Source of the DNA: Zea mays
Taxonomy: Eukaryota; Streptophyta; Magnoliopsida; Poales; Poaceae
Direction: 5' to 3'
Assembly: GCF_902167145.1 (NCBI RefSeq)
Contig: NC_050098.1
Location: 83,306,207 to 83,370,206, forward strand
Length of the DNA: 64,000 nt
Part shown: positions 1 through 45,026 of the stretch, piece after piece
Layout of the letters: each line of letters starts with the position of its first letter
Position numbering within the stretch: position 1 is the first letter of the stretch
The notes under the pieces: model-generated
Seen by the model: the letters and a program-made list of their open reading frames with translations, nothing else
Told to the model about the DNA's origin: nothing
Database searches by the model: none
Program-made: the position numbers and the translations under genes

Positions 1-672
1 TTTTCTTACAATAACAGCTATCAGTCCAGTCTGAAGATGGCACCTTTTGAGGCATTGTATGGGAGAAGGTGTAGGACCCCACTAAATTGGTCTCAGGCAG
101 GAGAAAGGGAAATTTTTGGGCCAGATTTGGTACTTGAGGCAGAGGCAAAGGTCAGGGTGATTACCAAGAACTTGGAAGCTGCTCAGGCTAGGCAAAGGAG
201 CTATCATGATAAAAGGCGGAAGCCTCTACAGTTTGAGGTGGGAGATCATGTCTATCTTAAGGTATCACCCACAAAGGGTGTGCAGAGATTCGGGATCAAG
301 GGCAAGTTAGCTCCTCGCTACATTGGACCCTATAAGATCAAGGCAAGCTGTGGACCCGTAGCCTACCAATTGGAATTACCACCTCACATGTCAGCAGTTC
401 ATAATGTGTTCCATGTATCCCAGCTGCGGAAATGCGTTCGTCTACCCACTGAAGTGCTACCGGAACCAGACATTGAGATAGAACCAGACTTGTCCTACCA
501 AGAGTACCCCGTCAAGGTATTAGATCAAAAGGAGAGATCAACTCGGGCAAGGTCGGTCAGAATGTGCAAGGTTCAGTGGAGTCACCATTCAGCAGAAGAA
601 GCTACATGGGAGACGGAGGAATTTCTACGCTCTCGCTTCCCCGACTTTCTACCCAAAGGAGTCGGTATGTAA
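1..672 (+). CDS. Gag-pol polyprotein, integrase C-terminus with chromodomain (partial)
   Basis: The frame is open from base 1, so the gene continues to the left. About 223 residues are visible. First comes the end of the integrase catalytic region (SYNNSYQSS, then FEALYGRRCRTPLNW). Next is the GPY/F-type module (KLAPRYIGPY) and the FHVSQL motif. It ends with a chromodomain-like segment (KVQWSHHSAEEATWE) and a TAA stop. In this lineage the integrase inserts cDNA into chromatin, and the chromodomain is thought to steer it to marked histones. No stop or frameshift is seen here, unlike the equivalent part of GyA, but the rest of the gene cannot be judged. Confidence 0.93.
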   Translation, partial: FSYNNSYQSSLKMAPFEALYGRRCRTPLNWSQAGEREIFGPDLVLEAEAKVRVITKNLEAAQARQRSYHDKRRKPLQFEVGDHVYLKVSPTKGVQRFGIKGKLAPRYIGPYKIKASCGPVAYQLELPPHMSAVHNVFHVSQLRKCVRLPTEVLPEPDIEIEPDLSYQEYPVKVLDQKERSTRARSVRMCKVQWSHHSAEEATWETEEFLRSRFPDFLPKGVGM

Positions 673-922: not shown

Positions 923-1785
923 TGTAACACCCCAGGTGTTACCTTGGCTAGAGCCACTTTGGCACTAGAAGCTGTGTTCACAAGGGTAAAGACTTAGGGC
1001 ACCACATAAGAACTTTGGAGATCATGTGCTAATCAAGTTGCCAATGACAAAAGAAGCATTACTCTAATCCTTGCACACTTACTACCTTGGATAATAGGGG
1101 AGAAGAACCCTAGACCTCTCCTAAACCCTATCTTCCAAAACCCTAAGTAAGGGGGGGGGGGAAAGAGAGTGAACAAGGGTGCAAAGTGTGTGTAACCTTT
1201 GCCCAAACCCTAAGCAACATTATAACCATCAATTAAGGGAGGGAAATATTGCAAAAAGACCCCTGGAGAAACCCCAATTCAAATCTCCAAGTGGAGAGAG
1301 AGCTAGAGCTCTCTATTTCCCTCTAAGTCACATTTTAGCCCTAATCCAAAGACCAGCCGTGTTCACTTTGAAGATGGCGCCAAAACCACTTGGGTTCTAT
1401 ACCAAAAATGTGGTATACCACTTAAGGCACCCCCTGGAAAAATTTGAGACCGAGACTCAGACGTTTGACAGCACTTGACATCAGTTTTGTCGCTGAGTGG
1501 GCAGAGAGACAAGCCAGATTTGGCGCCCGTCTATCTCCCGATCTAGGGCGTATCATCCCTTGGAACTCACACATGTGAGATAGCCCTAGGTGCCAGGAGG
1601 AGGTCTGTGCCGGTTTCATGGCGAGATTCGCACGTTTGTGATCTCTGGAGACGTTTGAACACTGGAAGAAACTCACCTCCACGTGTTCGACGCCTTCTGC
1701 CCGCGCCAGAGCACGCTCGCGCGCGTTCCCCGCATGCCCCGCGCCGCGCCCGAGCCAAACCCGCGTCGTGGCCCGCGCCCGAGCT

Positions 1786-1792
1786 TATAAAG
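1786..1792 (+). promoter_or_regulatory. LTR promoter TATA box (Gy1)
   Basis: TATAAAG sits in GCTTATAAAGCCCTCCC. The reversed GyA LTRs have CCTATAAAGCCTCCC at the matching place, so the box is conserved between families. Transcription would start some 25-35 bases downstream. Confidence 0.75.
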
Positions 1793-2316
1793 CCCTCCCA
1801 GGCTTCGACTACACCCTTCCGCGCACCCTCCACACCTCACCGGAGTTAGCTCGTCGCCGTTTGCCCGTGCGCAGCGAGTCCGCGGCCGCCCAATCCCTTT
1901 GTCACCATAGACCGGCCAATAGAGCCATTCCCAACCCCGTCCAGCCCTCGGAGAAGCCTGTGCACACCTCCGTGAGGCTCCCCGAGCAAGGAATCGGAGT
2001 TTACTTCGCCGGAGAAGCCAGTCCACGCTCGCCGGAGCTCTCGACCCCGCCGGAGTACGTGGACCGGGTAAACCACTCCACCATCCTTCGATTCCTTGTG
2101 CATACAGTCGCTGCGTGACCCCGTTAAGCTCACCGTGCCCTCGGATTGAACCAGTTCGCCATGGTTTGGCCGGTATACTCGCCGCCGATGAGGACACCCG
2201 CCTGCACGCGTGGACCGGGCGATTCTGGCCATCTCCGACGTCGGGCCGTACCTCGACGTGACCGGCAGAGTCTCCCCGAGCCAACCCCACCCTTCGCCGG
2301 ACCTCCCTCGCTGCCG

Positions 2317-2322
2317 GTAAGC
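2317..2322 (+). other. Candidate splice donor in Gy1 LTR leader
   Basis: CTGCCG|GTAAGC matches the plant 5' splice consensus and is repeated at the homologous place in the left GyA LTR (GCCG|GTAAGC, about 23354). It stands where GC-rich leader gives way to AT-rich sequence. An ORF from ATG 2161 reaches this donor in phase 0, while the downstream exon at 3766 needs phase 1. The joined reading frame is therefore unresolved. Confidence 0.5.
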
Positions 2323-3765
2323 CGCGCTGCCCTTTTCTTTCCCGCGGTTACTGTTTGCATAAGGGGAAGGACTGCGGGTGAGAGGGAGAGAAGGTCAGGG
2401 GGTTTTGTGAAATGTCAGAGACACAGGGGAATAGTGGCGTGGGGGTAGATTTGCGAAGGTGGATTTAGTTTAAACCCAGGGACCTTGGTGTAAACTGTTT
2501 TTCCAGGAAACACTTTTTAAATTCTATTTTAAATTGAACAGAGGCTTTAAAAAAATTCATAACTTATGATTAGTTCATCCAAATTTGGTCAAACAAATTT
2601 TGTCAGACTCCAATTAATGTAACCTATTTAAGAAAAATATAAAACCCCTTGGTGCTGTAGAAAACTTAAAAGTTCTGCTTTAATGTTAGTTTTGGCCAAA
2701 AGCTAAATAATAGTAAGAAAAATAATTAGGCTAATTGACTAGGGTTAGGAAAAATTGGGGAAGTTTATAATTACCTACTAACCTGTTTAAAAATGTTGAA
2801 CCTCTCTGTCCACTCCATTTAAGTTAGTTTTACCCCTTATTCTATAATATGCTTAAGGATAGGGAAAATAGAAAATGTAATTTAATTAATGAACCAGAGA
2901 GTACCTCTATTTTTGTTAGGTTCATTATTCAATATAGTTCACTGGAAAAATATATCATACCCTGTTTTAGTGTAAAATAAGTAAGATCTCTTTTGTTTTA
3001 ATAAAACAAGTGAAACTTAGAAAAACTCTACAAAAATAACCCCAAGGTAAAAACACCCCCACCCTTGGGATAACTATTGTTTTATTAGAGAGAACTTAGG
3101 AAAAATATGAAATCTGCTGTTTGACATTTTTCAAATAATAATGTAGTAGAAAGTGCCTTTTTGACATTAAACTTAAGAAAATCATAACTAAATAACCACC
3201 CCTTAGTTCTCTGTGATTTTTAGCACAAAGACCTATTATTACTAAGGGATGCCAGCAAAAATAACCTTTAGGACAGAACCTACCCCTAACTAAGAGGTGT
3301 AGTGTAAAGTGGCCCATTTTGCCTAACTCTTGTTATTTTTGTTTAAAGCCTAGCCTTTGTACTTAAAGCCTCAACTTCTTAAAACAAGTTAGAATAGCAA
3401 AGGGCAACCCACTGTAATTTTTACAGAATTTTTTTTGGAAATTATTAAAACCCTGTTGTAGTTCAAACCTACCCTAGAAACCCTAAATGGGAATTAATGA
3501 AAGGAAAAAGAATAATGTGAATTAAGGTTATCCTAAAACCTTTGTAATCTGTCCACTAAAATGTATCAAGGCAATACCAAACCACTATGTTATCCTAAAA
3601 GAAAACCTAAGCTTAAAGGGTCATAAGTCTATGTATCTATATATATACCACTAGAAGCCCCGCGTGACTAAGAAAACCCTAAGTTACTTCTTAACTTAGT
3701 TTCTTTAGCTTAATGTTCTTAAATCTTGCATAATCATGACATACATGTTCATTGCATTTCAATAG

Positions 3766-3885
3766 ACTGTAATCTTGCTGATGGAGAGTACATCCTCGTG
3801 CCGGAGCAAGGAGTTGCTCAGGAGGTAGCCCCAGATCCAGCACCCGAGTCTGCACCAGAGGACCTGCCAGCCACTGCTTTGGAAG
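3766..3885 (+). other. Candidate coding exon 2 inside Gy1 LTR
   Basis: The segment is preceded by TTTCAATAG and followed by GGAAG|GCAGGC, a GC-type donor. With one base borrowed from upstream it reads DCNLADGEYILVPEQG, then an acidic, Pro/Ala-rich stretch ending in LEG. Both GyA LTR copies align as DCNLADTEYVLIPEQG (right copy) and a close variant with one stop (left copy). In the matched blocks most differences are silent third-position changes (for example GAC/GAT, CTT/CTC, GAT/GAC, CCG/CCC, CAG/CAA). No ATG lies in this frame in Gy1, so translation would have to start in another exon. Function is unknown. Confidence 0.55.
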
Positions 3886-4872
3886 GCAGGCCCCGGTTTT
3901 ATGCATAACCTGTTATTTATGCTATTTTACTTCACTTAATGATTGTAGGATTGATTGTGCACTTAGGTGTAGGAATTGTTTGAAACCCTAGTTGCATGAT
4001 CTCAGGAATCCTTTTGAGATGAATACTAGTATGACAGGTCGAGTAGTTGCTTTATTTAATTAGGATCTCGGTAGAAGACGAGTGATTTTTCTAGCACTCG
4101 CGCGAGATCAGGAAATTGATTGTACCCACTTTCACACTGTCATGATACTAGTTGGTGGACAACAATCCATGGGGATTGGTTGTTCCCGAGATGGAAAATG
4201 GAATAAGGATTAACGTGCGGATACCTGTGTCAAGCGTTTGAACGTACTGAACACATACCGAGAAATATGGTAAATCGGTAAGCCTAGTACCTGAGTGAAC
4301 CTGCCCGCAGACATATCCCCTCACGCGACCTGAGACGAGGTCTCCCATTCCGGTTATGGTGGGTACAAGTGCGGTCACTGCACGACGGCCAGTCGGGGTC
4401 AGTGGGGCATTGTACGCCAAGGCGGTGAGCCCTGATCTGTTGCCAGGGAATCGATGGGGACGGTTGATGTGTGTGGGGACGGAGTGCCCCTGCATGTCGT
4501 GTGTTTAGGTTTACCTTGCAAGGATAAAAACTCGATTCGAATCGTCTGCTTCTCGCAGCTAATGAGACTGCTTGATCCATTGTACTGCATTGAGTAATAA
4601 GTGGAAGTCTGATGAGTTGAGATAAGATGTTGATTGCTAATAATGCCTGCTACCATGTATGAGTAGATAGTCCACTTTTAGCCTTAAGAGAGTCACACTT
4701 AACTTTGACTAAGTTAAAATCTTGATTTAGAAACTCAGCTAGTGCTTTTGGCAACCAAACCCCACAGCCAAACAACTGCATGTCTAGAGGTAGAGGAGTA
4801 GACTCCTCACACCGGGTAAGTCTAGCTGAGTATTAGTATACTCAGCCTTGCTTGTGGCATAATTTTTTACAG

Positions 4873-4979
4873 GTTCTCTGGAGGAGATGGTTGCTGGGAT
4901 AACTTGGCCGTCCACCTTGCCACCGGGTTGGACTGTTGAGTGGGACCCTGCCTCGGCTGAGGAGGAGCATGAGGAGTGA
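4873..4979 (+). other. Candidate terminal coding exon 3 inside Gy1 LTR
   Basis: The segment follows a strong acceptor (AATTTTTTACAG|GT). Joined to the single base left by exon 2 it reads G-SLEEMVAG, TWPSTLPPGWTVEWD and a short acidic tail EEEHEE, then TGA. The GyA LTRs read G-TLQDMVDG, TWPTTLPPGWTVEWD and GEEHEE, then TAG. All tryptophans, the PPGW core, the acidic tail and the stop position are kept, with eight silent codon changes against mostly conservative replacements. This supports selection on protein. I do not recognise the family. Confidence 0.6.
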
Positions 4980-5300
4980 TGGGATAGGCTTCCCCATCTC
5001 TCTGTTTAATTACCGTTAGTTTTATTCCGCTGCATTTCGAACAATGATGGTTACTTTTGCAAAAACTCCGATGATGATGATGGTGATGTAATAATTTAAC
5101 ATTGTGACATGTATGGTTTTATGCTTTATTGTATTTGCTCTGTGACTCACCTTCGAGTGAGATTGTGGTACTTGATCCTGTCAGTGGCCGTGTCGGACTA
5201 GATCCGAGGGATTGACGGGTTATTCCCATTTAAGTGTGGTCTAGCCTCTAAGGCGGGACTTGGGCACTTAAGTTGGAATAATTCGGGCAGTTCCGCCACA

Positions 5301-6834: not shown

Positions 6835-7099
6835 TGTCAGAACACTAACGAGGATAGACAATGAAATACACGAGCAAATATTTGGTGCTACAAGCGGCAG
6901 CTTTTCTAGTGTCTCTCTATTCATTGTAAAGAAAATACATGCAGTCATATATGATTGCAAACTAACTGAATCAATCACGGCATGCCCAAGATCGGCTGTT
7001 GCCATCCCAACAGCCTAGACATGCCGCCTGCCATACTTAGCCACTAATCAATATAAACTACCAAATATAGTTAGCGGGTGCTCAGGGTTTATTCTAACA
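6835..7099 (-). repeat. Cop1 3' LTR
   Basis: 265 bp. On the plus strand it runs TGTCAGAACACTAAC to TTATTCTAACA. It is a near copy of 11560-11824. The small size is normal for copia elements. Confidence 0.95.
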
Positions 7100-7115
7100 A
7101 TCTCCTCCTAAGCCC
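7100..7115 (-). other. Cop1 polypurine tract
   Basis: In sense GGGCTTAGGAGGAGAT directly before the 3' LTR; the plus-strand DNA primer site. Confidence 0.8.
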
Positions 7116-7123
7116 TTGAGCAA

Positions 7124-7714
7124 CTACTTTAGCTTCTTCATGACGATCCCATCACGGAGTCCTTGAAACCTGCTTCGTCCGAGCGCCTTTGTCAGGAAGT
7201 CACCCAACTGAAATTCAGTACCAATGAACTCGACGTCGATCAGCTTCCTATCGCAGCATTCTCGGATAAAATGGAACTTGATATCTATGTGTTTACTCCG
7301 ATCATGGTGCACAGGGTTCTTCATCAAGGTGATGGCGGACTTGTTGTCCACCATGAGCTTGGGTGCAAGGACTGCTCCTCCAACGAGCTCAGCCAGCAGA
7401 CGTGCTAGCCAGATCGCCTCACACGCAGTTCCTGCAGCAGCGATGTACTCAGTCTCGCATGAAGACAGAGCCACCACCCTTTGTTTTGCCGACTGCCATG
7501 CAATCGGACCTCCTGCTAGGAAAAAAATCAGCCCACTTGTACTCTTTCGGTCGTTCACGTTGCCCGCCAGATCGTTGTTCGAGTATCCCAGCAACTTGGG
7601 AGCACCGGAGTTCTTCTTTCCTGGGTGGTAGTGCAGCCCCCACTGCTGTGTTCCGACAACGTATCGAAGAACACGCTTCACTGCAGCAAGGTGTTCTTGG
7701 CGCGGTCCCTCCAT
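7124..7714 (-). pseudogene. Cop1 RNase H section
   Basis: Typical copia RNase H: YSNNDLAGNVNDRKSTSG (normally ...DAD/DWA..., so the first catalytic region looks altered), WQSAKQRVVALSSCETEY, VDNKSAITLMKNPVHH and RSKHIDIKFHFIRE, ending with DFLTKAL. RNase H removes RNA from the RNA-DNA hybrid. The open frame stops 24 bases before the 3' LTR. Confidence 0.9.
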
Positions 7715-7743
7715 AAACCGGCTAAGGTAGCAAACAGCATAAA

Positions 7744-8340
7744 CTAGGTTAGGCTAGAGTTGCACAAGTACCTGAGGCTGCCGATGATGCTGCGGTACTC
7801 CGTCGCATCAACGCTTGGCGTGTCTCCCTCTTTGAGCAGCTTCAGCTTGGGCTCCATAGGCATGGCACTAGCGTTGCATCTGGTCATGCCTGCCTTCTCA
7901 AGGATCTTGGCAGCGTACGCAGTCTGCCGGAGCATGATGCCGGCTGGTCCTTGCGACACTTCGAGGCCTAGGTAGTAGGAAAGTAACCCAAGGTCACTCA
8001 TGCGGAAGGTGTTCATCATCTGTCCCTTGAACTTGTTCACAGCTATCGCATCTCCTCCGGTGATGATTAGGTCATCAACGTAGACGCCCACGATTAGGCG
8101 CCCTGTGCCACTGCCACGGGTGTAAATACCATGCTCGTCGACACAGCGCTTGAAGCCGAGACCGAGTATGGAGGCGTCGAGCTTCTGGTTCCAGGCCCAT
8201 GGAGCTCGACGAAGCCCGTACAGAGCCTTGCGGAGGTGCAACACTTTGTGCTTGTTCTTGCTGTCGATGAAGCCTGAGGGTTGCTGGACATATACCTCCT
8301 CGTGAAACTCCCCATTCAGGAACGCCGATTTTACGTCCAT
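7744..8340 (-). pseudogene. Cop1 reverse transcriptase core
   Basis: Copia RT palm: MDVKSAFLNGEFHEEVYV, ALYGLRRAPWAW, then the catalytic YVDDLIITG, which is intact. RT copies the RNA genome into DNA. The frame is lost just after LCNSS at about 7744, and RNase H continues in another frame. Confidence 0.92.
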
Positions 8341-8352
8341 GTGGTGAACGCT

Positions 8353-9249
8353 TCATCCGAGCAGCCTGACTGACTTCAGCCGCGCGACAGGGGCGAACAC
8401 CTCTTCAAAGTCGATGTCGGGGCGCTGCACATACCCCTTTGCCACGAGACGTGCCTTGTACTTAATGATGGCATCGTTCTCCTTTCGTTTCACCTTGTAC
8501 ACCCATTTGAGACCGATGGCTTGTTGATCCCGAGGGAGATCAACCAGCGCCCATGTGTCGTTGTCGCGGATAGACTTGAGCTCCTCCTCCATCGCCGCGT
8601 TCCAGTTTGGATCGCCATCAGCATCTTTAAAAGACTTGGGCTCCTCCACGCTGACGTTGTGCAGCTCGGCTTCCTCGACGTCGCGGTGAGCCCGACCAGG
8701 CACGGTGTTGGTTCCAAGGACGTTCTCGAGTGTCCTGTACCGGTGCTCCAGGTCCTCATCGTCGTCCATATCGAGGTTCGGGTCATCGCTTAACGGCATC
8801 GCGAACTCCACCTGCGTCACCCTGGTGGAGTCTTGCCTCAACGTCGAGCCCAGAACGGGTGAGCCAGCTCTAGAGGCTGCTGGCATCGCTCCTCCAGTGC
8901 GCGACGGCGTGCCCGACAGGGGTGGCGATGGACCCATAGCATGCAACGGGGATCCAAGCACAGATGATGTCGGTGCCTGACGACACAGCTCATACTCCTC
9001 CTCGACGGTGAACAGCACCAAGCTGTCGCTTGGCGTGGTGCTCCCCCAGTCCCAGCACGCGTTTTCGTTGAACACGACGTCGCGCGTGACCCGGACGTGC
9101 TCCGTTGTTGGGTCGTAGAAGCGGTATGCCTTCGCTCCTTCTTCGTAGCCGATGAAGACCACCTTCCGACCATGATCCTCGAGCTTGGTCGGGTGCGGGC
9201 GCAGATGTTTGATGTAGGCGACGCACCCAAACACTCTTAAGAAGTGCAT
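8353..9249 (-). pseudogene. Cop1 integrase C-terminus and RT start
   Basis: 298 codons. Begins with the copia integrase tail (HFLRVFGCVAY, FIGYEEGAKAYRFYDP), passes through an acidic linker and enters reverse transcriptase (KWVYKVKRKENDAI, YKARLVAKGYVQ, FAPVARLKSVR). It ends at a TGA. The junction to the next RT block looks a few residues short of the usual copia spacing, suggesting a small deletion together with a Trp-to-stop change. Confidence 0.88.
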
Positions 9250-9273
9250 GGGTGGTTTCTTCCTGTACCATGC

Positions 9274-9957
9274 CTAGAACGGTGTGAGGTCGTCGAGGGC
9301 TGCCGTGGGCGACTGGTTGAGGAGATACACTATGGTGTGCACCACCTCTCCCCAGAAGAACCCTGGCATGCCTCGAGCACGCAGGATGGAACGTGCCGTG
9401 TTCACGACCATCTGGTTTCTCCTTTCTACGACGCCATTCTGTTGAGGAGAGTATGGCATAGAGTGTTGACAAAGGATTCCCTCACCTGCACAGTACTGAC
9501 CGAATTGTACTGAGGTGAACTCTCCTCCATTGTCGGTGCGGAGAACTTTCAGCTTCTTGCCGGTTTCCCGCTCGACCTTCGCCTGAAAACTCATGATGGC
9601 CGCCGGTGCATGTGCCTTGGAACGCAACAAGGTGAGCCACATATACCTGCTCATGTCATCAACCAACAGCAGAAAGTATGTGTTCCCCACCGGCGTCGGT
9701 GGAGTGACCGGCCCGTAGAGGTCGCCATGGACCAGCTCGACCTGATCCTTTGCCCGGAATTTGGCGGCCTGCGGGAATGGCGCTCTCTTTTGCTTGGCGA
9801 GAACGCAGTCCTCACAGACTTGCTCGACGTGGTCGATCTCCGGCAGCCCCTTCACCATCTCACCGCGGCAGAGTTTGCGCAGCGAATGGAAGTTCAAGTG
9901 CCCGAACCTCTCGTGCCATCTCCAGGCGATGTCGCCAACACGAGTAGTGAGGCACAC
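9274..9957 (-). pseudogene. Cop1 integrase section
   Basis: Integrase joins element cDNA to the chromosome. The HHCC zinc-binding region is visible (HERFGHLN...CEDCVLAK), as are the catalytic acids in HGDLYGP, RTDNGGEF and QQNGVVERRN, in the usual D, D, E order. The same frame continues upstream to the protease through one more stop near 10001, and downstream through the TAG at 9274 into the connection region. Confidence 0.92.
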
Positions 9958-10071
9958 CGGGGCGACGATGATGATGTCGAGGTAGTAGAGGCGGCTTGGG
10001 GATCAGTGCACCTTGGCGAGCAAGAGTGGTTGCGGGTCGAAGATGCAGAGGATGCCCTCCTCGATGATGAC

Positions 10072-11487
10072 CTAGAAGCCATTCTCGTCCATCTGCCCGA
10101 GGCTCACTATATTGGTGGTGAGCCGCGGGATGAAGTAAACTCTGCCGAGTCGGCGGTGTTCGCCGGATCTGAGGGCAAAGAGAACAGTGCCCTTCCCCTC
10201 GATGTTGACCACCGACCCATCACCGAACTTGACGGTGCCGGTCACGCCGCTGTCGAGCTCGGAGAAGACATGACGCGAACCCGTCATATGGTTCGTCGCG
10301 CCGGTGTCGAGGACCCATCCGCAGGGCCCCTCTGCCTCCTTCTCTTCCTCCCTGAGGTGGAAGAGGACCTTTGATTCCATGAGGTGGACGCTCTGTGGCG
10401 GATTGACGGCGCATAGCGACGGCGACGGCGCTGAGGAGTGGAGAAGAGGTGCGTGCGGCGCAGTTACCTCGGACTCAACGGAGATGAACATGAGGGCCCG
10501 ATCTTCTTCCTCCTCAGCCTGGGCCACATGGGCTGCGGCCTTTTTCTTCTTGCCTTTGTAGTCTCTGGCCCAATGGCCTTTCTTCCCGCAGCTGTTGCAG
10601 AGGGTTCCAGGTGGCGACCTGCCACCGCCCGCGTTCCTGCCAAACTGGCCATCACGGGACGAGGAGCCGGTGCCGCCACGACCGCGTCTGCGCCCTTGGT
10701 CCTTCCCATGGCTGCTTGAGCTACCGTCGCCACCGGAACTCTCCTGCTCGCGGCGGATCTGGCGACGTGCCTCCCAGTCTTCTTCACAGAGCAGGAGTGA
10801 GCCCATACCGTCCGTGATCTCCTTTGGCTTGCCGCGCTCCTCGAACACGCGCAGCCACCCGACGACGTCCTCGATCGAAGCCATGATCAGATCGAGGAAC
10901 ATCTCGAGAGACACGGCGGCCTGAGACAGCCGATCAGGTACCACCTGCAGAAGCTTCTTCACCACCTCGGCGTCAGAGATGTTGTCACCGAGGATGCGAA
11001 GGTTGACGGTGAGTGACGTGATGCGGATCCCGAACTCGGAAACAGACTCCCCATCCATGAAGACGAGCGCGCCGAACTTGCGACGGAGCTGCTGCGCGCT
11101 GGCGTCACACGCGTGGCCATCACCGACCCACAGTACCTTGACAGCGTCCCACGCTTCCTTCATGGTCCGCCTGCGACCGAGCGTCCCCCACATCTCGGAG
11201 GGGACCGAGCGCAGGAGACACGCCATTGCCTGGCGGTCTTGCTGGTACTCATCTTCATCCGGGTCCTCGTCAATGCCGATGTCGACGGCGTCCCAGACGT
11301 GGAGCTTCTGGTAGTTCACCTCCATCAGCAGTGCCCATTCCAGATAGTTCGTTCGCGTGAGCATTGGCCACGCGACGTTGGCTGATGAACGCTCGACGAC
11401 GCGCTCCATGATCCGTGATCCAGAGCGGTGGCGACTCTCGGAACGACCACAGCGACGGCGTGGCGAGCGCAACGGCTCGGGCTTCAT
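10072..11487 (-). pseudogene. Cop1 gag and protease section
   Basis: 472 codons. An N-terminal copia Gag region (PMLTRTNYLEWALLMEVNY) is followed by a Gly/Arg/Ser-rich linker, a zinc knuckle and the aspartic protease (GWVLDTGATNHMTG). Gag forms the virus-like particle and protease cuts the polyprotein. The knuckle reads CNSCGKKGHWARDY: the last cysteine of CCHC is tyrosine, a one-base G-to-A type change that should weaken RNA binding. Protease Asp-Thr-Gly is kept. The section ends at a TAG. Confidence 0.92.
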
Positions 11488-11545
11488 TGTCAGTTAGCTT
11501 GATCTTGGCAGGCGACAAAGACATGGCGACGATGAAGAAGAACCG

Positions 11546-11557
11546 GCTCTGATACCA
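11546..11557 (-). other. Cop1 primer binding site (initiator Met tRNA)
   Basis: In sense TGGTATCAGAGC, the classical initiator Met tRNA complement, two bases after the 5' LTR. Confidence 0.92.
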
Positions 11558-11559
11558 AT

Positions 11560-11824
11560 TGTCAGAACACTAACGAGGATGGACAATGAAATACACGAGC
11601 AAGTATTTGGTGCTGCAAGCGGCAGCTTTTCTGGTGCCTCTCTATTCATTATAAAGAAAATACATGCAGTCATATATCGTTACAAACTAACTGAATCAAT
11701 CATGGCATGCCCAAGATCGGCTGTTGCCATCCCAACAGCCTAGACATGTCGCCTGCCATACTTAGCCACTAATCAATATAAACTACAAAATATAGTTAGC
11801 GGGTGCTCAGGGTTTATTCCAACA
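11560..11824 (-). repeat. Cop1 5' LTR
   Basis: 265 bp, paired with 6835-7099. Differences between the pair are mostly transitions. Confidence 0.95.
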
Positions 11825-20476: not shown

Positions 20477-20583
20477 CTACTCCTCATGCTCCTCTCCAGC
20501 TGGAGCAGCATCCCACTCGACCGTCCAACCTGGTGGCAGGGTGGTAGGCCAAGTCAAACCATCAACCATATCCTGAAGCGTAC
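20477..20583 (-). other. Candidate LTR coding exon 3 (GyA 3' LTR)
   Basis: In sense reads G-TLQDMVDGLTWPTTLPPGW, then TVEWDAAPAGEEHEE and TAG. It is homologous to Gy1 4873-4979 with the stop in the same place. Here the expected acceptor ACAG has become GCTG, so this copy may no longer be spliced. Confidence 0.55.
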
Positions 20584-21569: not shown

Positions 21570-21692
21570 CTTCAATAGCTGGGTCTGCGGGGAGATCCTT
21601 GATAGCAGCCTCAGGAGCTTGCTCCTAGCCTTCCTCTTGGACAGTTCCTTGCTCGGGGATGAGCACGTACTCTCCGTCAACGAGATTACAAT
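21570..21692 (-). other. Candidate LTR coding exon 2 (GyA 3' LTR)
   Basis: Preceded in sense by GCATTCATTAG and followed by GAAG|GCAAGC. Reads DCNLVDGEYVLIPEQG, then an acidic region ending IEG. One in-frame TAG (21625-21627) replaces a probable CAG. Confidence 0.5.
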
Positions 21693-23879: not shown

Positions 23880-23886
23880 CTTTATA
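23880..23886 (-). promoter_or_regulatory. GyA 3' LTR TATA box
   Basis: In sense CCTATAAAGCCTCCC; the 5' copy is at 45670-45676. Confidence 0.75.
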
Positions 23887-37334: not shown

Positions 37335-37562
37335 GGAATCTCGTCCCAAGATTCGGGTCAGAGTCCTCCCGGGGTGAAGCGAAGGGTGAGACTTACATGA
37401 AGTGGGTGCTTATTATTAGGGCAAACTGCTCTTCGAGTGTCATTCTCTTTGCAACTTCAGAAGAAAGTCCTATTAAGTTTTGTTTCATAATTACTTCATT
37501 CTGATTTAAGATTATATTTCTGAAATTTAGATTCGAAGGGCAGGAGGAGGGGTTGGGTGTGA

Positions 37563-43810: not shown

Positions 43811-43917
43811 CTACTCCTCGTGCTCCTCTCCTGTCGGAGCAGCATCCCACTCGACCGTCCAACCCGGTGGCAGGGTGGTAGGCCAAGTCACACCATCAAC
43901 CATATCCTGAAGCGTAC
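43811..43917 (-). other. Candidate LTR coding exon 3 (GyA 5' LTR)
   Basis: Acceptor intact (AATTTTACAG|GT in sense). Reads G-TLQDMVDGVTWPTTLPPGW, then TVEWDAAPTGEEHEE and TAG. This is the best preserved GyA copy. Confidence 0.6.
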
Positions 43918-44903: not shown

Positions 44904-45026
44904 CTTCAATAGCTGGGGCTGAGGGGAGATCCTTGATAGCAGCCTCGGGAGCTTCCTCCTGGTCTTCCTCTTGGACAGTTCCTTGCTCGGGGATGAGCAC
45001 GTACTCTGTGTCAGCGAGATTACAAT
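44904..45026 (-). other. Candidate LTR coding exon 2 (GyA 5' LTR)
   Basis: Acceptor GCATTCATTAG, donor GAAG|GCAAGC. Reads DCNLADTEYVLIPEQG, then an acidic region with EEAPEAAIKDLP, ending IEG with no stop. In this copy the frame is also open back to an ATG at 45057. Confidence 0.6.

What the first reader, a model, noticed from the sequence alone, without database searches (positions are those of the whole stretch)
3766..4979. Two protein-conserved, splice-bounded segments inside the Gy1/GyA LTR
Seen: 3766-3885 and 4873-4979 of the Gy1 LTR align in frame with 21692-21570 / 20583-20477 and 45026-44904 / 43917-43811 of the GyA LTRs. Blocks such as DCNLAD.EY.L.PEQG and TLPPGWTVEWD...EEHEE are kept. 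About eight silent codon changes occur in each segment, other changes are mostly conservative, and the stop is in the same place. Each is bounded by an AG acceptor, and a donor AAG|GC(A/G) joins them in phase (one base plus two). Inference: R-U5 encodes a small spliced protein distinct from Gag-Pol. Chromovirus LTRs are normally treated as non-coding.
Basis: partly seen in the sequence, partly recalled or inferred. Interest (0 to 1): 0.9.

Follow-up and report, generated by a model that had tools for sequence, protein, structure and literature searches.

The report
Spliced coding exons inside retrotransposon LTR
The end-repeat of a maize-type jumping gene, normally treated as non-coding, carries two short protein-coding pieces that appear spliced together in maize gene models and whose protein sequence seems to have been kept by selection, although we do not yet know where its translation begins.

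Summary
Two segments of a 4.4 kb grass chromovirus LTR (Gy1 3766-3885 = E1; 4873-4979 = E2) are conserved as protein in GyA. Joined dN/dS is 0.29; 0 of 20,000 neutral simulations reach it. In a six-frame scan of R-U5, 290 overlapping stop-free 35-codon windows remained; the 13 lowest p values were all in the E1 or E2 frame. Splicing has independent support: two maize proteins (LOC100278178; LOC100275057 = UniProt B6SMY3) and a JGI contig protein carry E1 joined to E2 exactly at the predicted GC-AG intron.

A protein 'distinct from Gag-Pol' is not shown. E1 has no AUG. The inferred leader exon (TATA 1786, donor 2317) is closed in E1's frame and shows at most a marginal coding signal. The only open, in-phase upstream frame I found inside the element is the end of Pol, where a moderate donor-like G|GTAYGTAA straddles the stop. 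I lean to a 75-76-residue acidic Pol/integrase tail encoded in the 3' LTR and reached by splicing (about 0.4); a stand-alone small protein is the main rival. The intron is itself conserved (82%; last 133 nt 96%). Limits: one deep DNA comparison, no RNA seen.

The parts
1..672 (+). Gy1 pol 3' end: integrase SH3 and chromodomain, ...LPKGVGM*
   Evidence: Pfam SH3_Tf2-1 1.7e-26, Chromo 20.2 bits (below the 25.1 cut-off)
661..672 (+). donor-like GTCG|GTATGTAA straddling the pol stop (donor GT at 665); exon would end with one spare base, as E1 needs
   Evidence: (approximate donor matrix from recall): score 2.9, about the top 3% of GTs of the window; GyA counterpart ATTG|GTACGTAA at 37574-37563, score 2.5; letters checked
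923..5300 (+). Gy1 3' LTR (TGTAACACC...GCCACA), end approximate
1786..1791 (+). TATAAA, conserved in GyA3 at 23886
1817..2316 (+). inferred leader exon 0 (start taken as about 30 nt after TATA, not mapped), ending CGCTGCCG|GTAAGC
   Evidence: conserved donor, TATA-donor distance 531 (Gy1) and 532 (GyA3) nt; at most a marginal coding signal
2317..3765 (+). inferred intron 1 (mostly 53-58% identical; 3099-3196 is 77 of 98 identical)
3766..3885 (+). coding exon E1 (with the preceding base: DCNLADGEYILVPEQG...ALE|G)
   Evidence: joined to E2 in maize proteins
3886..4872 (+). GC-AG intron, 799 of 973 identical to GyA5
   Evidence: splice read from protein junction ALEG|SLED
4740..4872 (+). very conserved 3' end of the intron (126 of 131 identical) with hairpin CUGAGUAU-UAGU-AUACUCAG
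   Evidence: z -2.4 in Gy1, -2.5 in GyA5
4873..4979 (+). coding exon E2 with stop TGA
44904..45026 (-). E1 in GyA 5' LTR
43811..43917 (-). E2 in GyA 5' LTR
21570..21692 (-). E1 in GyA 3' LTR (in-frame stop, decayed)
20477..20583 (-). E2 in GyA 3' LTR (acceptor AG lost)

Best explanation
E1 and E2 are two genuine coding exons in the transcribed part of the LTR of a Tekay-like grass chromovirus. They are joined by removal of a 987-nt GC-AG intron and encode a 75-76-residue, strongly acidic peptide with almost no lysine or arginine, probably unfolded (conservation, joint and composition shown; translation not). They take their N-terminus from an upstream exon that ends with one spare base. The mechanism I commit to (inferred, about 0.4): in full-length RNA the donor-like site across the pol stop (G|GTAYGTAA) is spliced to E1 of the 3' LTR, which skips the pol stop and U3 and adds the E1-E2 tail after the integrase chromodomain. 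At the 5' end the same exons are joined to leader exon 0 and act as a shortened leader. Where an LTR lies by a host gene the same acceptors are captured, giving the maize gene models. The conserved intron end may govern splicing or export of unspliced RNA (guess).
For: Coding: joined dN/dS 0.29, 0 of 20,000 simulations; 13 lowest p values of 290 stop-free windows; pol positive control dN/dS 0.085 in its own frame. Splicing: P0001 (LOC100278178) and P0121/P0122 (B6SMY3 / LOC100275057) carry E1|E2 joined at the predicted place. In P0168, a contig protein holding the upstream exon of LOC100275057, the exon reads on as Gln-Gly-Asn, which fits a G|GTAAY donor with one spare G and so an AG|AC acceptor (DNA not seen). 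P0002, a JGI protein, is joined too and begins at the Val whose codon in Gy1 is a GTG, the first start-like codon in frame on exon0-E1-E2. E2's acceptor is used with other upstream sequence in P0076 and P0167. Pol tail: donor-like site at the same place in Gy1 and GyA, one spare base, phase fits; no GTAYGT at the pol ends of GyB (whose LTRs gave no E1-E2 match) and GyC (LTR not delimited here), which run straight into the PPT. Precedent: CRM group A pol runs into the 3' LTR (PMC3059260, one figure-legend passage seen).
Against: No RNA read or protein joining pol to E1 was seen; the protein searches could not return one, because candidates were limited to 1.75 times the query length. The pol donors are only moderate (1.7 to 2 sites per kb score as high) and the argument was made after seeing the sequence. 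A stronger donor (5.6) lies after the pol stop in GyA at 37396 and, read by hand, does not give E1 an open frame. P0002's start argues that this RNA was not joined to pol (unless the contig simply ends there). By dN/dS rank E1 is only 12th of 272 windows. One exon-0 window in E1's phase, spanning the donor, reaches p 0.023, so a coding exon 0 is not fully excluded. DNA-level selection rests on one deep pair of sequences.
Confidence: 0.65

Rival explanations
1. A stand-alone small protein of the LTR promoter: exon 0 is spliced to E1 (or to an acceptor a little upstream) and translation starts at a non-AUG codon or at an AUG some 11 or more residues before E1.
For: Of 127 database proteins with a residue at position -11, 89 have Met there, many as the called start. 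Both GyA LTRs read MHVSYSLHSLDCNL without a stop. Conserved TATA and exon 0 donor. P0002 fits exon0-E1-E2.
Against: Gy1 has no in-frame AUG between the upstream stop at 3720 and E1. Position -11 is Met in 70% of rows against 98-99% identity for DCNL; the rows were called as genes and found through E1, so both figures are biased. The joint seen in LOC100275057 removes this stretch. On exon0-E1 the frame is closed 18 codons back with no AUG in both families.
Confidence: 0.3
2. Only a 30-residue peptide starting at the Met of E2 is made (MVAGITWPSTLPPGWTVEWD...EEHEE); E1 is leader.
For: E2 windows have the lowest dN/dS of 272 stop-free windows (about 0.2). AUG context GAGATGG / GATATGG.
Against: E1 shows its own frame-specific constraint (p 0.0019) and the E1-E2 phase is kept.
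Confidence: 0.1
3. No protein: the sequence is kept at nucleotide level (splicing, RNA structure) and the maize gene models are accidental LTR exonizations.
For: The intron is more conserved than the exons (82% against 71% and 77%). The N-terminal part of LOC100275057 is one maize locus, and that of P0001 has no convincing match in the window. Some intron windows rank above E1 by dN/dS.
Against: Change in E1 and E2 is frame-specific, with most at codon position 3 (10, 8, 17 and 8, 2, 13 changes at positions 1, 2, 3), and the p-value scan singles out these frames.
Confidence: 0.15
4. Pieces of a host gene captured by the LTR.
For: Two exons with an intron look gene-like.
Against: No Pfam family for P0001, P0002, P0122 and no PDB relative of P0001. 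Among the proteins seen, the named maize ones look like LTR capture by other exons and the rest carry no informative name.
Confidence: 0.05

Closest known systems
CRM group A centromeric chromoviruses (also Beetle7 and Bingo1 of sugar beet)
   Same: Chromovirus whose coding region continues into the 3' LTR; in CRM group A the LTR encodes the CR motif (PMC3059260, one figure-legend passage; PMC3605345, passages)
   Different: There the ORF is described as extending into the LTR. Here the pol ORF stops before the PPT, and the LTR exons could be reached only by splicing and lie about 3.1 kb downstream (pol stop 672, E1 3766).
CERV of Cer1, a Ty3/gypsy element of C. elegans
   Same: Extra product made by multi-exon splicing of the element RNA (PMC10309623, passages)
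   Different: CERV is 517 residues, its exons 1-3 share the gag frame, and it has a known role in RNA export; no sequence relation claimed or tested.
ORF0 of Retrosat2, RIRE3, RIRE8 (rice)
   Same: Grass elements with LTRs of about 3 kb and an extra coding region (PMC3485330, abstract and passages)
   Different: ORF0 lies between the 5' LTR and gag-pol; GyA has an ORF at that place too (43123-42479). E1-E2 lies inside the LTR.
Extra ORFs of plant LTR elements (Grande, RIRE2, Retand, Athila)
   Same: Additional coding regions in plant LTR elements (PMC7264820, first of three parts read)
   Different: Those are described in the internal region.
MMTV sag, foamy virus tas (recalled, no call)
   Same: Accessory protein encoded in or into the LTR
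   Different: Retroviral; no relation tested.

Membership tests
Tekay/Del chromovirus | integrase with C-terminal chromodomain | tested here: inconclusive
   Gy1: SH3_Tf2-1 92.6 bits; Chromo 20.2 bits, below the Pfam cut-off of 25.1; the nested GyB reaches 29.7
Tekay/Del chromovirus | long LTRs (about 2.5-6 kb in maize Tekay, Prem1, Xilon, Diguus, Dagaf, Gyma, Flip; that these belong to the clade is recalled) | tested here: met
   Gy1 LTR 923-5300; lengths of maize families from PMC3091746 Table 1 passages
Tekay/Del chromovirus | reverse transcriptase phylogeny | not tested
   no reference set at hand; clade named from layout and recall
CRM group A (LTR-encoded Pol C-terminus) | pol ORF continues into the 3' LTR | tested here: not met
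   pol stops at 672, LTR begins at 923
CRM group A (LTR-encoded Pol C-terminus) | CR motif | not tested
   no CR-motif profile compared; E1-E2 has no Pfam match
Retrosat2/RIRE3/RIRE8 ORF0 | ORF located between 5' LTR and gag | tested here: not met
   E1 and E2 are inside the LTR; GyA has another ORF between LTR and gag
CERV-like spliced accessory product | multi-exon product of the element RNA | tested here: inconclusive
   E1-E2 joint seen in maize proteins with other upstream sequence and in P0002; joining to element exons only inferred
CERV-like spliced accessory product | needed for export of genomic RNA | not testable with these tools
   needs experiments

The most novel reading that the evidence does not exclude
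Grass chromoviruses run a splicing programme like that of a complex retrovirus: Pol is made in two forms, one ending at its own stop and one carrying an acidic tail encoded by two exons in the 3' LTR, with the choice governed by a conserved RNA element in the GC-AG intron, so that integrase targeting or element expression is tuned by splicing.
Probability: 0.28. Interest if true: 0.88.

Novelty: new variant of a known kind. Interest (0 to 1): 0.72.

Why it matters
LTRs of plant elements are usually treated as control DNA. If these LTRs code, many copies (1531 database proteins matched the E1-E2 profile at E up to 1) are also exon donors: in two maize gene models they already supply the 3' coding exons. 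It would make testable why LTRs of such elements are so long, why maize LTR-retrotransposon ESTs fall mostly in the LTRs (PMC3091746 passage), and whether integrase of these elements has a splice-controlled tail.

Tried and rejected
Rejected or left: chance ORFs; nucleotide conservation as sole cause (frame-specific signal); exon 0 as a coding exon (lowest p 0.02 among 207 stop-free windows, the lowest on the minus strand; one plus-strand window at 2274, in E1's phase and spanning the donor, p 0.023; no AUG in that frame), weak but not excluded; the conserved block after the pol stop as link to E1 (phases read by hand do not fit; sequence); Rfam element in the LTR (one hit up to E = 1, snoR1, 21.1 bits against a cut-off of 49); viral contig L001 (no nucleotide match to the window, phage-like by eye) and L002 (a short pol-like piece, no E1-E2).

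Led nowhere: more DNA copies were sought in viral contigs, genome contigs and plasmids without a usable relative. AlphaFold2 of P0001 with 35 rows gave mean pLDDT 54.4, so no fold was searched. Two other stretches of the intron, 4060-4140 and 4500-4620, do not fold better than shuffles (z -0.5 and +0.5). Literature searches for a prior report: (listings), with passages or parts read; nothing seen there describes coding exons in a Tekay-clade LTR. The library holds only open-licence papers.

Full report
WHAT IS THERE. The window holds nested Ty3/gypsy elements. Gy1 (+ strand) is cut by the window start: pol ends at 672 and the 3' LTR runs from 923 to about 5300. GyA (- strand) has its 5' LTR at 46547-43498 and its 3' LTR in two parts, 37319-36688 and 24132-20164, around the nested element GyB. 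The GyA 5' LTR lacks about 1.5 kb of U3 that the 3' LTR has. Pol of Gy1 carries integrase SH3 and a sub-threshold chromodomain match. Naming the elements Tekay-like rests on layout and recall.

THE OBSERVATION. E1 (3766-3885) and E2 (4873-4979) were confirmed against the sequence. The GyA 5' LTR copy is open through both. The GyA 3' LTR copy has a stop in E1 and has lost the AG of the E2 acceptor, as expected of decay after insertion.

CODING TEST. By counting (Nei-Gojobori type, kappa 2), Gy1 against the GyA 5' LTR gives dN/dS 0.38 for E1, 0.19 for E2 and 0.29 joined. Random placement of the same number of changes gives as few amino-acid changes in 0.19%, 0.69% and 0 of 20,000 runs. The pol end gives 0.085 in its own frame and 1.5-2.2 in the other two. 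GyA 5' against 3' LTR gives 0.60, p 0.18. Scan of both strands of the R-U5 alignment: 1573 overlapping windows of 35 codons, 290 without a stop in either sequence, the 13 lowest p values (800 simulations each, 0.004-0.021, uncorrected) all in the E1 or E2 frame. Ranked by dN/dS, E2 windows come first of 272 stop-free windows, but E1 comes only 12th, behind intron windows with few changes. The limit is plain: one deep pair of sequences, and E1 alone is modest.

PROTEIN RELATIVES. The joined peptide found 408 proteins with E up to 1 and a four-row alignment 1531; 120 of each list were visible. Most of those seen are unnamed contig ORFs reading E1 into the intron. Among 146 rows matching E1 (of 168 proteins held), identity to the commonest residue is 66-88% just before E1 (positions -9 to -2), 98-99% at DCNL, as low as 40-56% at single columns in the middle of E1, and 70-90% in the six columns after it. 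These rows were found through E1, so the step is suggestive only. E2 was recognised in 21 of 166.

SPLICING. P0001 (LOC100278178, maize, 125 aa) contains E1 and E2 joined as ...ATALEG|SLEDMV.... P0121 (B6SMY3) and P0122 (LOC100275057) contain ...DCNLVDGEYILV...APALEG|SLEDMVVGVT and end there, ten residues into E2. The first 75 residues of P0122 match only P0122, P0167, P0121 and contig protein P0168. P0168 reads on as ...ALRRQGN, which fits an exon ending in one spare G followed by GTAAY, so the joint with E1 would be G|AC; its DNA was not seen. P0167 and P0076 join other sequence to E2. P0002 (64 aa, from a 1685-nt contig) is joined and starts at the Val that in Gy1 is a GTG, the first start-like codon in frame on exon0-E1-E2; it could also simply be cut by the contig end. 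That B6SMY3 stems from a cDNA is recalled, not checked; no RNA was examined here.

WHERE TRANSLATION BEGINS. E1 has no in-frame AUG. Unspliced, GyA has one 11 residues before the Cys of E1; Gy1 has none before the stop at 3720. Upstream, both families share TATAAA (1786; GyA3 23886) and, 531-532 nt on, a donor CGC(T/C)GCCG|GTAAGC (2317; GyA3 23354). Exon 0 joined to E1 is closed 18 codons back with no AUG in both. In the exon 0 region the lowest p of 207 stop-free windows is 0.02 (minus strand); one plus-strand window in E1's phase that spans the donor gives 0.023. At the pol end, Gy1 has GTC G|GTATGTAA and GyA ATT G|GTACGTAA. A splice there skips the stop and gives G|AC or G|AT = Asp, the residue found at the start of E1. 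GyB and GyC have no GTAYGT there; the LTRs of GyB gave no E1-E2 match, the LTR of GyC was not delimited. Donor scores use an approximate matrix from recall. About 2 donors per kb score as high, so a site in phase within the last eight codons is expected about 1.6% of the time (my arithmetic, after the fact). I therefore prefer the pol-tail model at about 0.4, with the stand-alone protein at 0.3.

NATURE OF THE PEPTIDE. 19 acidic and 0 basic (K, R) residues of 75 (Gy1), 20 and 1 of 76 (GyA). No Pfam or PDB relative. AlphaFold2 mean pLDDT 54.4, best ten-residue blocks 74-79 in E2: probably a flexible acidic tail. An activation-domain or chromatin-binding role would be a guess.

THE INTRON. It is 799 of 973 identical, above E1 (85 of 120) and E2 (82 of 107); its last 133 nt are 126 of 131 identical, while 4620-4740 is 78 of 116. 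Silent sites of E1+E2 differ at 47%, so the intron seems to be under its own constraint. The conserved end folds better than 198 of 200 shuffles in Gy1 and in GyA5; two other intron stretches do not.

KNOWN. Chromoviruses with pol running into the 3' LTR exist (CRM group A, Beetle7, Bingo1), spliced accessory products of Ty3/gypsy elements exist (CERV), and grass elements of this kind have ORF0. A spliced, two-exon coding unit inside the LTR was not found in the papers searched.

Noticed in passing
4740-4872 (GyA5 about 44051-43918): Intron end 126 of 131 identical between families whose LTRs are 52-89% identical in the other stretches measured; perfect hairpin CUGAGUAU-UAGU-AUACUCAG beside a GTAAGT donor-like site.
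   Followed up: partly
767-810 and GyA 37469-37426: A block between pol stop and PPT is 40 of 44 identical in Gy1 and GyA (reads LPSEVAKRMTFEEQ in one frame), preceded by AG and, in GyA, followed at 37396 by the strongest donor of the internal region.
   Followed up: partly
43123-42479 (-): GyA has an ORF0-like ORF between 5' LTR and gag, whose ATG directly follows a pyrimidine-rich CAG acceptor-like sequence, so ORF0 may also be a spliced product.
   Followed up: no
P0001, P0121, P0122, P0167, P0076: Maize gene models whose 3' coding exons are supplied by this LTR (exonization).
   Followed up: partly
3099-3196: Island of 77 of 98 identity inside an otherwise poorly alignable intron 1.
   Followed up: no
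6835-11824: Copia-type element, - strand (Pfam copia gag), with 265-nt repeats 95% identical at both ends.
   Followed up: no
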